Shown here one piece after another: positions 4,988 through 14,204 of a DNA stretch of 64,000 nt. The notes beneath the pieces were generated by a model. The model worked only from the letters and a program-made list of their open reading frames with translations. It had not been told where the DNA came from and ran no database searches. Source of the DNA: Bacillus sp. WMMC1349 (GTDB lineage: Bacteria > Bacillota > Bacilli > Bacillales > Bacillaceae); contig NZ_JABJUQ010000007.1 in NCBI RefSeq assembly GCF_013155385.1, forward strand, positions 2,338,001-2,402,000. The letters run 5' to 3'. Both the position numbers and the translations under genes were made by a program. Within the stretch, counting starts at the first letter, position 1. Every line of letters begins with the position of its first letter.

Positions 4988-5341
4988 ATGACAGGTGTTT
5001 TTGCAGCGCTCGGGTACGTCATCAAGGAACTTGTTTTTTTAGTATCATATGTGAAAAACAATGCCTTTCCACAACCGCTCTCAAGCAGTGAAGAAAAAAA
5101 GTATTTAGAATTAATGGCTGAAGGGAATGAGCATGCGAGAAATATGCTAATTGAGCACAATCTTCGCTTAGTCGCCCACATCGTCAAAAAATTTGAAAAC
5201 ACAGGCGAGGATTCGGAAGACTTGATTTCCATCGGAACAATCGGGCTGATCAAAGCGATCGAGAGCTACTCTGCGGGCAAAGGAACAAAGCTCGCCACAT
5301 ATGCGGCACGGTGTATTGAAAATGAGATATTAATGACGTAA
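4988..5341 (+). CDS. spoIVCB: N-terminal half of sporulation sigma factor K (SpoIVCB), interrupted
   Basis: Encodes the pro-sequence and regions 1-2 of the late mother-cell sigma factor. It runs from MTGVFAALGYVIKELVFLVS (the pro-sequence) through HNLRLVAHIVKKF and DLISIGTIGLIKAI to ARCIENEILM, then stops at ACG-TAA just past the element junction. The start at ATG 4988 follows the ribosome-binding site TGGAGGTG. It is 117 residues; an intact SigK is about 240. The missing half is the 13806-14204 gene, which lies on the OPPOSITE strand, so excision could not rejoin them whereas inversion would. The frame across the shared core is compatible (IENEILM + HLRALKK). Confidence 0.96.
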   Translation: MTGVFAALGYVIKELVFLVSYVKNNAFPQPLSSSEEKKYLELMAEGNEHARNMLIEHNLRLVAHIVKKFENTGEDSEDLISIGTIGLIKAIESYSAGKGTKLATYAARCIENEILMT

Positions 5342-5350
5342 GGGGAGTGC
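5306..5350 (+). other. left recombination site of the sigK element (attL)
   Basis: The core is 5321-5335 (AATGAGATATTAATG). To its left is sigK coding sequence (the B arm). To its right is a non-coding P arm, 5336-5350 (ACGTAAGGGGAGTGC). The core matches 14184-14198 in reverse complement at 14 of 15 positions. The P arm reappears at 14207-14220 in the same plus-strand direction with 13 of 14 bases shared. Joining the two P arms gives a palindromic site, as expected for attP of a large serine recombinase. Confidence 0.85.
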
Positions 5351-5369
5351 GAAATACCGCACATCCCCT

Positions 5370-6872
5370 TTAATATGTCTCAATATCCACTTTGTCAGAA
5401 TCAACGATAACGATCTCTTTGACCAGAAAGTTGATGATCGCTTTTTTGTCTTCGGAAGTTAAGTTGTCGGCTCCAATATGATTAAAATAATCAATTGCCC
5501 TTTTCAAAGCATTATCACTTAACTTTGAATGTTGAGCTTCTTTCATTTTGGACTCTATTTCGTTCAGTTGCTTTGTAAGATGATTTTGCTTTTTTTGAAG
5601 TTCAACGATTTGACCCTTAATTTCTTCTATATTTATTTCGTCATCTTCACTCAGGCTGATTAGTGTAAATAAACGTTGTCGGCCTCTTTTAGTTTTTTCG
5701 AGTTCTTTTTTTACAAATTCGAGTTCTTCAGCAAGATGATTTGTTTTACTTACTTCTTTAAAAGCTGAATATTTTTCAGGATTTGTTATGAATCTATAAA
5801 CTTCTTTCCATACATAATTGTTCAGTTTATTTTCAGACATTTGTTTGCCGCACCCGCGGTTTTTAGATCCAGCGTAATTTTTCCGGCAATCGTAAATGTA
5901 GTAGTCTTTTCCATGTGACTTTCTTTTTCGACCAGTCATTGTATTTCCACATATACCACATCTCACTAAACCAGATAATAAATATTGGTGTGGGCTATAG
6001 CTTAAATGCTTTCTTTTACTCTTCCCTAACAGTTCTTGAGCATAATCCCATTGTTCTGATGGAATGATTTGCGGAATGTTGATGACATACCGTTCTTCTT
6101 TCGGTCTTAACTTTAAAAGACTTTTCCCTCCTGCTTGCTTCGAAACATAACTGCCAACAGTATCATATTTGTACTGTTCATATTCACCTTTGTAAGCAGG
6201 GTTCATAAGGATTTGGCGCACCACTTGCCTATGCCAGACCTTTCCGCCTTTTTTGGTTTTTATTCCTAATTCGGTTAGGTGTAAAGCTATTCCATTTACT
6301 CGGGAGAAAAAGGGGCTAGTATGATCCGTAAAATAATCAAAAATCATTCTTATGATCTTTGCTTCTTCATCGATTATTTTAAGGGTTCTTTTTTCTTTTA
6401 TAAATTTCAATCCAAATAGACCTGAATCTTTTATGATCATACCTTTTTTTATTTTTTGAAGGCGACCGGCTGATGTTCTTTCTTTTATTTTCGCTTTCTC
6501 AAATTCTGAAATAGCTCCTCGCATAGAAAAAAACAGCTGACCTTCTGGTGAATCTGCATATTCACCATTCACAAATATTAAAGTAATTTTTTGCTTTCTT
6601 AATTCATCATCTATTATGAGTTGGTTCATTAATTTTCGTGAAAGTCGGTCTGGGTCGTAACAAATCACTTCATTTATTAACCCTTTTCGAGCATCTTCAC
6701 GTAAACGACTTAACGCAGGACGTTCTAACAACTCACCTGAATATCCTTCATCAGCGTATTTTAATACGTCAGTCGTCCCAGCCTTCTTCAGACAAGCTTC
6801 TATTTGACTGTCGATACTCGACCCTTTGATTGCTTGTTCCTCGGTCGATACCCTTACATATATCGCTATCAC
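5370..6872 (-). CDS. spoIVCA: large serine recombinase SpoIVCA-type
   Basis: Site-specific recombinase expected to rearrange sigK in the sporulating mother cell. The 500-residue protein has an N-terminal resolvase domain with catalytic Ser9 (IYVRVSTEEQ) and conserved arginines (YDPDRLSRK). A recombinase domain follows, then a zinc ribbon (CGICG, later DCRKN and GCGKQ), a long coiled coil around residues 380-450, and a C-terminal tail. The start is GTG 6870-6872, seven bases after AAAGGAG. Position and orientation directly beside attL match B. subtilis. Its start lies inside an upstream small gene, suggesting coupled translation. No frameshift is visible, so the enzyme should be active. Confidence 0.95.
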   Translation of the reverse strand: MIAIYVRVSTEEQAIKGSSIDSQIEACLKKAGTTDVLKYADEGYSGELLERPALSRLREDARKGLINEVICYDPDRLSRKLMNQLIIDDELRKQKITLIFVNGEYADSPEGQLFFSMRGAISEFEKAKIKERTSAGRLQKIKKGMIIKDSGLFGLKFIKEKRTLKIIDEEAKIIRMIFDYFTDHTSPFFSRVNGIALHLTELGIKTKKGGKVWHRQVVRQILMNPAYKGEYEQYKYDTVGSYVSKQAGGKSLLKLRPKEERYVINIPQIIPSEQWDYAQELLGKSKRKHLSYSPHQYLLSGLVRCGICGNTMTGRKRKSHGKDYYIYDCRKNYAGSKNRGCGKQMSENKLNNYVWKEVYRFITNPEKYSAFKEVSKTNHLAEELEFVKKELEKTKRGRQRLFTLISLSEDDEINIEEIKGQIVELQKKQNHLTKQLNEIESKMKEAQHSKLSDNALKRAIDYFNHIGADNLTSEDKKAIINFLVKEIVIVDSDKVDIETY

Positions 6873-6966
6873 GCTGTATCTCCTTTCTATAGAGACTTAT
6901 TAAATAATGATAGCAATCATTAATGCATTTGTCTGCATGAGGCCCCTCTATGATCTTGATTTTCAT
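6769..6966 (-). CDS. small protein overlapping the recombinase start
   Basis: A 65-residue frame, MKIKIIEGPHADKCINDCYH..., starts at ATG 6964-6966 nine bases after AGGAGGG and overlaps the recombinase gene by about 100 bases. The ribosome-binding site is strong, so translation is likely. From memory, short proteins beginning with a similar KI-x-I-x-GP pattern occur before serine recombinases in Bacillus elements, but the family could not be confirmed here. It could be a coupling peptide or a recombination accessory factor. The C-terminal third is read from recombinase-coding DNA, so only the first 32 or so residues are free to evolve. Confidence 0.55.
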   Translation of the reverse strand: MKIKIIEGPHADKCINDCYHYLISLYRKEIQRDSDICKGIDRGTSNQRVEYRQSNRSLSEEGWDD

Positions 6967-7125
6967 GGTGTCATCCCTCCTGCTAAATGTTTATGAATTA
7001 GCAGGTTGTACAGATGCTCTAGATAAATTATTCTATTTCAAGACAGAACATTCGTTTCTTTATAATCATTTTAATGAACTACACACACCAATAAACAATT
7101 ATATATTTTTGTAAAAAAATGGACA

Positions 7126-13034: not shown

Positions 13035-13703
13035 TCGTCTTGGTAAATATTGTGATGCAATGTATTTTGATGAATTTCAGGATTATAATGGTGCTGATTT
13101 CAAGACAATGAAATATTTACTTGAGAAAACAAAAATAAGAGTAACAGCAGTTGGTGATATATTCCAAAGTTGTCTAACTCCACGAGCTCGTGGTGCGTCA
13201 TCACCCTTTAATAAAATTAATTCAGCGGCTGATCTGAAAAAGAAACTCTCAAACAAAATCATGGTTAATGAGTCTGAGTTAATAAAAAATCGAAGAGTCC
13301 CACCTTCTGTTTGTGAGTTTATTAAGTCCAATTTAGGAATAAAAATCGATTCAGCTTCAAATGTAAATGCTGCTATAATAACACTAACTGAAGTTGAGAG
13401 CATCCATCAAATCATGATAGACTCTCACATTCCTAACCTGATCTGGAATAGTCGTTTAAAACATGCGTTGGGGAATAATTACATTAATTGGACTTACTCT
13501 AAAGGTGATACCTATAGTCAATCATGTGTAATTTTAACAGATAAGACTAGCCGAAAAGACCATTGGAGGAGTACATCAGTTAAAACGAGGAATGCTTTAT
13601 ATGTAGCATTGACTCATTCAGAGGGGATTTGTACCTAATAACTAACGAAAATTATAAAAAATGGAGAAAGTATGCTGATTCATTACAAATTAAGGACAGA
13701 TAG
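13035..13703 (+). pseudogene. 5'-truncated, frameshifted UvrD-like helicase fragment
   Basis: Plus-strand sequence encodes CDAMYFDEFQDYNGADFKT (helicase motif II, DEFQD) and ends with NALYVALTHSEG (motif VI). A +1 shift near 13,620 then restores GDLYLITNENYKKWRKYADS up to the stop at 13,701. The N-terminal Walker A half is absent. It abuts the XhlA fragment on its left and the sigK terminator on its right. It is a relic of a superfamily 1 helicase, perhaps from a defence or mobile gene once next to sigK. No function is expected. Confidence 0.75.
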
Positions 13704-13765
13704 ACTTGGAGAAAGAACAAGTAATCAATAATTTTATAAACATTATGGATTAAATTATCTATTTA

Positions 13766-13800
13766 AAAATAGAGGCCAGAAATTTCTTCTCCTGGCCTCT
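13766..13800 (-). terminator. terminator of the sigK C-terminal half
   Basis: Hairpin with arms AGAGGCCAG (13771-13779) and CTGGCCTCT (13792-13800). On the minus strand it is followed by ATTTTTAAAT, directly after the sigK stop. Confidence 0.8.
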
Positions 13801-13805
13801 TAAAA

Positions 13806-14204
13806 TCACTTCCCCTTCGCCTTCTTCCTTTTCTCCTTCTCCGCCCGGTAAAATTCATGAAACATCTTCATCAATGCCCGCTTCTCAATCCGCGACACAT
13901 AGCTCCGCGAGATCCCGAGCTCCTTCGCGATTTCGCGCTGCGTTTTCTCTTTCTTCAAATCAAGGCCGAAGCGGCCGACGATGACTTCTTTTTCTCTACC
14001 GTCCAGGATGTCGATGTATTTTTTGACTTTTTCAAGCTCCATATTGAGCTGGATGGTATCGATGACGTCTTCGTTTTCCGATTTGAGGACATCGATGAGG
14101 CTGATTTCGTTTCCTTCTTTATCTTGCCCGATTGGATCATGAAGGGAAACATCTTTTTTCGTTTTTTTCAAGGCTCGCAGGTGCATTAAAATCTCATTAT
14201 TCAT
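13806..14204 (-). CDS. spoIIIC: C-terminal half of sporulation sigma factor K (SpoIIIC), interrupted and inverted
   Basis: Encodes regions 3-4 of SigK: NNEILMHLRALKKTKKDVSL, VDTIQLNMELEKV-like helices, DGREKEVIVGRFGLDL and the -35-binding helix-turn-helix REIAKELGISRSYVSRIEKR, ending EKRKKAKGK. It is almost identical in pattern to B. subtilis SigK. The ATG at 14202-14204 lies in element-side DNA, has no good ribosome-binding site and is probably not used. The coding strand is minus, whereas the N-terminal half is plus. If the cores at 5321 and 14184 recombine, the intervening DNA flips and this half joins the first in frame. Confidence 0.96.
   Translation of the reverse strand: MNNEILMHLRALKKTKKDVSLHDPIGQDKEGNEISLIDVLKSENEDVIDTIQLNMELEKVKKYIDILDGREKEVIVGRFGLDLKKEKTQREIAKELGISRSYVSRIEKRALMKMFHEFYRAEKEKRKKAKGK

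What the first reader, a model, noticed from the sequence alone, without database searches (positions are those of the whole stretch)
4988..14204. sigK halves lie head-to-head: reconstitution would need inversion, not excision
Seen: the SigK N-terminal half is on the plus strand (4988-5341) and the C-terminal half on the minus strand (13806-14204). Their shared 15-base cores (5321-5335, 14184-14198) are inverted relative to each other. The intact SpoIVCA-type recombinase lies between them. Known: in B. subtilis and the other skin elements I know of, the halves are direct and the DNA is cut out as a circle. Inference: here recombination would flip about 8.9 kb and create an in-frame sigK (IENEILM joined to HLRALKK), leaving the DNA in the mother-cell chromosome. 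An inversion-type developmental sigK switch would be new to me. The flip could in principle be reversible.
Basis: partly seen in the sequence, partly recalled or inferred. Interest (0 to 1): 0.93.

Follow-up and report, generated by a model that had tools for sequence, protein, structure and literature searches.

The report
Sporulation gene rebuilt by DNA flip
In this Bacillus genome the late-sporulation gene sigK is stored as two halves pointing in opposite directions with a recombinase gene between them, so making a working gene would likely require flipping about 9,000 bases of DNA in place rather than cutting them out, as the studied sigK elements of B. subtilis and C. difficile do.

Summary
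SigK N-half (4988-5341, +) and C-half (13806-14204, -) lie head-to-head, and a whole-assembly search lists no other sigK copy. An apparently intact SpoIVCA-type recombinase and a homologue of its directionality factor Skr lie between them. The att sites match those of B. subtilis 168: GA centre, 26-bp arms. Their GA centres have opposite polarity and the same codon phase, so attL x attR would invert 8.87 kb and give in-frame sigK. Against Bacillus changyiensis, the C-half plus about 0.36 kb of element arm is reversed between native flanks. In that block a truncated M78-peptidase gene decays neutrally while the C-half shows no amino-acid change, suggesting the half is still used. The arrangement recurs: of 78 split-sigK genomes with parts on one contig, 4 are inverted, including Pseudalkalibacillus salsuginis with a recombinase-Skr unit. 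Searches of open-licence papers listed no inverted sigK. The flip itself was not observed: one orientation is in the assembly, which is structurally discordant elsewhere. Verdict: a probable inversion-type variant of the skin developmental switch.

The parts
4988..5341 (+). sigK N-terminal half (sigma region 2), ends ENEILMT-stop
   Evidence: 116/117 aa identical to B. changyiensis (G006), dN/dS 0.044
5298..5351 (+). attL: B arm 5298-5323, central GA 5324-5325, P' arm 5326-5351; 15-base core 5321-5335
5370..6872 (-). SpoIVCA-type large serine recombinase, apparently intact, 500 aa
   Evidence: PF00239+PF07508+PF13408; 98% to B. changyiensis, 78% to B. subtilis SpoIVCA; dN/dS 0.099 vs G006
6769..6966 (-). 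skr homologue (recombination directionality factor), 65 aa, overlapping the recombinase start by 104 nt
   Evidence: 75% identical to the ORF at the same place in G035, taken as B. subtilis 168; Skr described as 64 aa overlapping spoIVCA by 101 nt in PMC6957869; no Pfam match
8660..11176 (+). LXG-domain protein (cargo), part of a dispersed repeat of about 8113-13035
   Evidence: PF04740; repeat copies
11580..12893 (-). phage-type lysis cassette: D-Ala-D-Ala peptidase/PG-binding protein and SPP1-type holin
13000..13638 (+). truncated UvrD-like helicase
   Evidence: 91%-identical relative of 363 aa labelled B. licheniformis; weak UvrD match, below the Pfam cut-off
13771..13800 (-). intrinsic-terminator-like hairpin directly after the C-half, in its own direction
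   Evidence: 12 pairs then a T-rich tail; 3 terminator-like sites found in 13600-14900, 0.7 expected from shuffles
13806..14204 (-). sigK C-terminal half (sigma region 4), inverted relative to the N-half and to the right flank
   Evidence: 132/132 aa identical to G006
14168..14221 (-). attR: P arm 14221-14196, central GA 14195-14194, B' arm 14193-14168; core 14198-14184
14205..14562 (-). element arm: decayed end of an M78-peptidase (ImmA/IrrE-like) gene, cut at the inversion breakpoint
   Evidence: 92% to G006 L147 in opposite orientation to the flank; PF06114 in the G006 gene; neutral-looking decay
14667..15412 (.). right chromosomal flank (GNAT gene 14885-15319, -) in native orientation
   Evidence: 14667 on matches G006, and 14835-15412 matches G012 and G017, on the same strand
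17646..17745 (+). decayed fossil copy of the sigK C-half, in the native (+) orientation

Best explanation
The two halves of sigK and their recombination sites lie in opposite orientation around a SpoIVCA-type recombinase gene and an skr homologue, so recombination between the two sites would likely invert 8.87 kb in the sporulating mother cell and join the halves into an in-frame sigK without losing the element. Shown by sequence: orientation, sites, codon phase, recombinase, skr homologue, and a small reversed block at the attR end between native flanks. Inferred: in the mother cell SpoIVCA plus Skr synapse attL with attR; the GA overlap (5324-5325 on +, 14195-14194 on -) fixes their polarity; strand exchange inverts the segment, placing the C-half and its terminator behind the N-half and leaving attP at about 14.2 kb. 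Without Skr the recombinase could flip it back (attP x attB), but the mother cell is terminal. The forespore keeps the split form. The state arose when a rearrangement reversed the C-half end of an ordinary excision-type skin element, which would cost little if inversion also rebuilds the gene.
For: Halves opposed, one copy each, no intact sigK listed. GA-centred att sites with the architecture of B. subtilis 168 and matching codon phase. Recombinase and skr homologue open and conserved. Flanks and fossil C-half show that the C-half block is what was reversed. Within the reversed block the M78 remnant changes 7/6/7 by codon position, with 2 stops in register and several gaps that shift the frame, while the C-half changes 5/0/25 with 0 of 132 residues altered; the remnant is cut at the breakpoint, so its decay plausibly dates from the inversion. 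Same geometry in P. salsuginis (G449): N-half with about 44 bases upstream reversed in place, att sites opposed and in phase, recombinase and Skr homologue between. Two further inverted cases, G722 and G723. A sigK-element recombinase inverts opposed attB/attP in E. coli (PMC5025042, passages).
Against: No molecule in the flipped state was seen. Of the 30 C-half differences from G006, only 4 are assigned strictly to the window's branch, 11 to G006 and 15 are unclear, so purifying selection after the inversion is suggested, not proved; the M78 gene may have decayed earlier. The C-half's dS from G006 (0.48) is far above its neighbours' (0.07-0.27), an unexplained separate history. My simple sigma-E -10 pattern (recalled) found nothing in 364 bases upstream of skr. 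The assembly has 5.56% contamination, and contig C1 carries, about 40 kb apart, two stretches that lie about 340 kb apart on C7. In G006 the halves lie on different contigs, so its direct state is inferred from flank orientation only.
Confidence: 0.62

Rival explanations
1. A dead-end rearrangement: deletion and inversion at the attR end broke a normal skin element in this strain, which now cannot rebuild sigK or sporulates poorly. The inverted halves are rare casualties among excision-type elements.
For: Only 4 of 78 same-contig splits are inverted; the element is degraded (truncated helicase; decayed M78 remnant); no sigma-E-like -10 found by my pattern upstream of skr.
Against: Geometry, core, dinucleotide, phase, recombinase and skr homologue all look intact, so failure would need a further lesion. 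The C-half has no stop, frameshift or residue change relative to G006 although its block-mate decays. In the three other inverted genomes the sigK parts and nearby serine recombinases that I looked at are open reading frames.
Confidence: 0.26
2. Assembly artefact: the C-half block was placed backwards by the assembler.
For: Redundant, discordant contigs elsewhere; an LXG/lysis cassette repeated many times in the genome lies next to the block.
Against: No second copy of window 13036-14834 is listed in the own-genome search (40 of 125 first-look candidates were scored). The two edges share no inverted match longer than 9 bases (shuffles: mean 8.5), and none of the 25 longest of 94 inverted pairs joins them. 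The edges are not clean relative to G006 (about 190 bases lost, about 100 gained), unlike a simple mis-join. Three other genomes show the same class of arrangement.
Confidence: 0.08
3. Two-step or replication-linked reconstitution: the opposed sites recombine between sister chromosomes or between two copies, so that sigK forms by a route other than a simple cis inversion.
For: None specific; serine recombinases also act in trans (recalled).
Against: Cis inversion is the simplest reaction between opposed sites and has been shown for a sigK-element recombinase on a plasmid (PMC5025042, passages).
Confidence: 0.04

Closest known systems
B. subtilis skin element (spoIVCB / spoIVCA-skr / spoIIIC)
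   Same: Same site in sigK, SpoIVCA 78% identical, Skr homologue 75% identical and overlapping spoIVCA, GA-centred att sites with the same arm layout.
   Different: Halves and att sites opposed instead of direct (G035: both +); recombination would invert instead of excise; about 9 kb instead of about 48 kb.
C. difficile skin-Cd with CD1231 / CD1234
   Same: Serine recombinase and directionality factor rebuild sigK; the recombinase inverts opposed attB/attP on plasmids (PMC5025042, passages).
   Different: In the cell skin-Cd is excised; its 'opposite orientation' refers to the element, not to the sigK halves; different insertion site.
gin in gerE (B. cereus), SP-beta in spsM, phi3T in kamA
   Same: Sporulation genes rebuilt by serine recombinase and directionality factor (PMC5595907 and PMC6957869, passages; PMC4191935, start of abstract in search listing).
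   Different: Described as excision in the passages seen.
Invertible DNA switches (Hin/Gin-type invertons; recalled, not read here)
   Same: Opposed sites, recombinase gene in or beside the segment, DNA kept in the chromosome.
   Different: Here a large serine recombinase with attL/attR and a directionality factor; developmental and terminal rather than phase-variable; both orientations not seen.
P. salsuginis (G449) opposed sigK halves, found here
   Same: Opposed halves, SpoIVCA/Skr-like unit, a gene half reversed in place next to a native flank.
   Different: The reversed half is the N-half with its upstream region; cargo is UxaC, GH31, TRAP transporter and ROK genes.

Membership tests
skin element (sigK-intervening) | splits sigK at the SpoIVCA site (ENEILM) | tested here: met
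skin element (sigK-intervening) | carries a SpoIVCA-type large serine recombinase | tested here: met
skin element (sigK-intervening) | carries Skr overlapping the recombinase start | tested here: met
   against
skin element (sigK-intervening) | att sites directly repeated, so that the element leaves as a circle | tested here: not met
   opposed polarity of the GA overlap
skin element (sigK-intervening) | sigK rebuilt only in the sporulating mother cell | not testable with these tools
   needs sporulating cells
invertible DNA switch | recombination sites in inverted orientation around the segment | tested here: met
invertible DNA switch | a recombinase able to act on the sites is encoded nearby | tested here: inconclusive
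   an apparently intact recombinase is adjacent; its activity is not tested
invertible DNA switch | both orientations exist in a population | not testable with these tools
   no reads; one orientation in the assembly

The most novel reading that the evidence does not exclude
A recurrent, overlooked class of developmental switch: in several Bacilli lineages the excision-type sigK element has turned into an inversion-type one, keeping its DNA in the mother-cell chromosome and making the reaction reversible in principle, by reversal of one gene half together with its att site.
Probability: 0.5. Interest if true: 0.86.

Novelty: new variant of a known kind. Interest (0 to 1): 0.78.

Why it matters
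In the papers seen here, developmental rebuilding of sporulation genes is excision, with loss of the element from a dying cell. An inversion-type sigK switch would show that the reaction needs only correctly paired att sites and phase, that the element need not be lost, and that the outcome could flip back without the directionality factor. It makes an old question testable: does losing skin DNA from the mother cell matter, or only joining sigK? It also warns annotators who might call opposed sigK halves a pseudogene or a mis-assembly.

Tried and rejected
Second intact sigK elsewhere in the genome: none listed. Inversion made by flanking inverted repeats: the edges share no inverted match above chance (longest 9 bases), and none of the 25 longest of 94 inverted pairs joins them. 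Large inversion of the whole element or of the left side: rejected, N-half and both flanks are native. Phage records: only a 55-base match to a Halomonas phage. IMG/VR with the recombinase: no relative; with a 25-base junction pattern: none, so no second strain with this junction was found. Other copies of 13036-14834 in the genome: none listed (40 of 125 candidates scored). The cyanobacterial literature was searched for an inversion analogue (listing only; not followed up). Passages of two further papers on sigK-inserted prophages, PMC5553647 and PMC13141910, name no inversion of the halves. sigma-E -10 pattern upstream of skr: no match. My dN/dS alignments for the G722 recombinase and the G722 argininosuccinate-lyase flank picked wrong frames and are not used. 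A regular-expression search for att cores in eight other relatives hit only one and was replaced by the GA-centred comparison. A search for a core shared by the two G723 parts found no common word of 8 bases or more, so its site was not resolved.

Limits of the survey: split genomes were flagged by eye from the E-values. G417 and G387 look possibly split and were not followed. Genomes of families f49, f53 and f86 with weak best hits were mostly taken as having a divergent intact gene and not re-searched. Pairs on different contigs (among them G006, G016, G032, G132, G346, G427, G473, G476, G510, G578, G589, G602, G650, G692, G707, G785, G801) say nothing and were left out, as were frameshift-like or unclear cases (G182, G285, G645, G655, G688, G704, G790, G811).
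Full report
Observation. The window (G000:C7:2338001-2402000) holds the N-terminal half of sigK at 4988-5341 on + and the C-terminal half at 13806-14204 on - (Pfam sigma regions 2 and 4). A protein search of the whole assembly lists each half once and no intact copy; the next hits are other sigma factors. The cores at 5321-5335 and 14198-14184 agree at 14 of 15 positions, are opposed, and are the only such sites in the 64 kb with at most one mismatch. 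A SpoIVCA-type recombinase with three expected domains lies between them, 98% identical to one in Bacillus changyiensis and 78% to B. subtilis SpoIVCA. The B. changyiensis label comes from a protein record whose contig length, 1,382,872, equals that of G006:C1.

The recombination unit. B. subtilis skin excision needs SpoIVCA and Skr, a 64-aa factor whose gene overlaps spoIVCA by 101 nt (PMC6957869, passages). The window has a 65-aa ORF (6769-6966, -) overlapping the recombinase start by 104 nt, 75% identical to the ORF at that place in G035. I take G035 to be B. subtilis 168 from its length of 4,215,606, which I recall. Placing a GA dinucleotide at the centre, the element arms of attL and attR form a 20-of-26 inverted repeat here and 17 to 22 of 26 in the seven other genomes tested, G035 included. 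GA is not its own complement, so it fixes polarity: + in attL, - in attR. G is the first base of a codon in both halves. A crossover would therefore invert 5324-14195 and keep the frame; direct excision is not available. A terminator-like hairpin follows the C-half in its own direction (13800-13771) and would move with it.

What was reversed. Left flank and N-half match relatives with intact sigK in one orientation. On the right, the GNAT gene and following DNA match G012, G017 and G006 in native orientation, whereas 13806-14562 (C-half plus element arm) matches G006 in reverse. A decayed C-half fossil at 17646-17745 is on +. So a block of about 0.8 kb was reversed in place. The edges are not clean against G006 (about 190 bases of its flank missing, about 100 other bases present). 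They share no inverted match longer than 9 bases, which is what shuffles give; none of the 25 longest of 94 inverted pairs in the region joins them.

Is the inverted half still used? The arm is the end of an M78-peptidase gene (PF06114 in G006) cut at the breakpoint. Its 20 substitutions fall 7/6/7 on codon positions, with 2 stops in register and several gaps that shift the frame. The C-half's 30 substitutions fall 5/0/25, with no residue changed (dN/dS 0.013). Relaxed decay beside strict constraint in one block suggests selection on the C-half after the break. Against this: only 4 of the 30 C-half changes are strictly assigned to the window's branch (11 to G006, 15 unclear), and the peptidase gene may have decayed before the inversion. 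The C-half's dS from G006 is 0.48 while neighbours have 0.07-0.27, which I cannot explain except by a separate history of this block. A simple sigma-E -10 pattern, recalled, found nothing in 364 bases upstream of skr.

Other genomes. I counted genomes with no intact sigK listed and two adjacent parts on one contig. Genus (44 genomes): 7 such genomes, 6 direct and G000 inverted. Order sample (397 genomes; 32 flagged genomes re-searched, one more, G081): 23 direct, 1 inverted (G449). Family of G449 (34 genomes): 3 further direct. Class sample (398 genomes, partly the same as the order sample; 67 genomes re-searched, G081 among them): 42 further direct, 2 inverted (G722, G723). In all, 4 of 78 inverted and 74 direct. 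Flagging and counting were by eye from the listings; left-out cases are named under Tried and rejected.

Against its congener G241 (direct) its left flank and C-half are native, and the N-half, with about 44 matching bases upstream of its start, is reversed next to a native right flank. A recombinase and an Skr homologue lie between, the att sites are opposed and in codon phase, and about 8 kb of glucuronate isomerase, GH31, TRAP and ROK genes are carried inside. In G722 sigK is in four pieces; the last, C-terminal, piece is reversed against a native flank relative to G738. In G723 the C-part with a recombinase beside it and the N-part are opposed 34 kb apart, in a region with transposase-like ORFs, read by eye; its flank relations are less clear and no shared core word of 8 bases was found there.

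Literature. Searches for sigK with inversion or inverted, and for sporulation rearrangements, list no inverted sigK. The library holds only open-licence PMC papers. Passages read in PMC5025042, PMC6957869 and PMC5595907 describe excision, and those in PMC5553647 and PMC13141910 describe sigK-inserted prophages without inversion of the halves. PMC5025042 also reports that CD1231 inverts DNA between attB and opposed attP on a plasmid in E. coli, and that attL x attR needs CD1234.

Assembly caution. G000 has 5.56% contamination; stretches of contigs C2 and C6 match the C7 end at 99.5%, and C1 carries, about 40 kb apart, two stretches that lie about 340 kb apart on C7. The LXG/lysis cassette at about 8113-13035 recurs in the genome (52 matching places of parts of it besides the window itself). 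These raise the risk for 8.1-13.0 kb. No second copy of 13036-14834 is listed (40 of 125 candidates scored), and the orientation against the flanks does not depend on the repeat.

Verdict. The arrangement is very probably real. The best reading is an inversion-type variant of the skin switch, inferred from intact parts, constraint and recurrence, with the flip itself still to be seen.

Noticed in passing
window 8113-13035; G000 C7, C1, C2, C5, C6: An LXG protein plus peptidase/holin cassette recurs in this genome (52 other matching places of parts of it, mostly 86-96% identical), a likely driver of rearrangement.
   Followed up: partly
L125 14681-14988, 16359-16474; L121, L126; window 17646-17745: Genomes of the B. 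licheniformis group have an intact sigK followed by an array of decayed sigK C-half copies in the same orientation, as if successive elements each brought a new 3' half.
   Followed up: no
G519 C1:2482443-2492565; G628 C4; G722 C1:348431-373936: sigK in three or four pieces, apparently split by two or three elements at different sites.
   Followed up: partly
L154 10477-18558 (P. salsuginis): A sigK element carries a glucuronate isomerase, GH31, TRAP transporter and ROK regulator instead of phage genes.
   Followed up: no
window 13806-14204: The C-half's synonymous divergence from G006 (0.48) is well above that of the eight neighbouring genes compared (0.07-0.27); its middle and 3' parts are closer to licheniformis-group copies.
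   Followed up: partly
G000 contigs C1, C2, C6: Redundant and structurally discordant contigs relative to C7 in the stretches compared, either assembly error or structural variants.
   Followed up: partly
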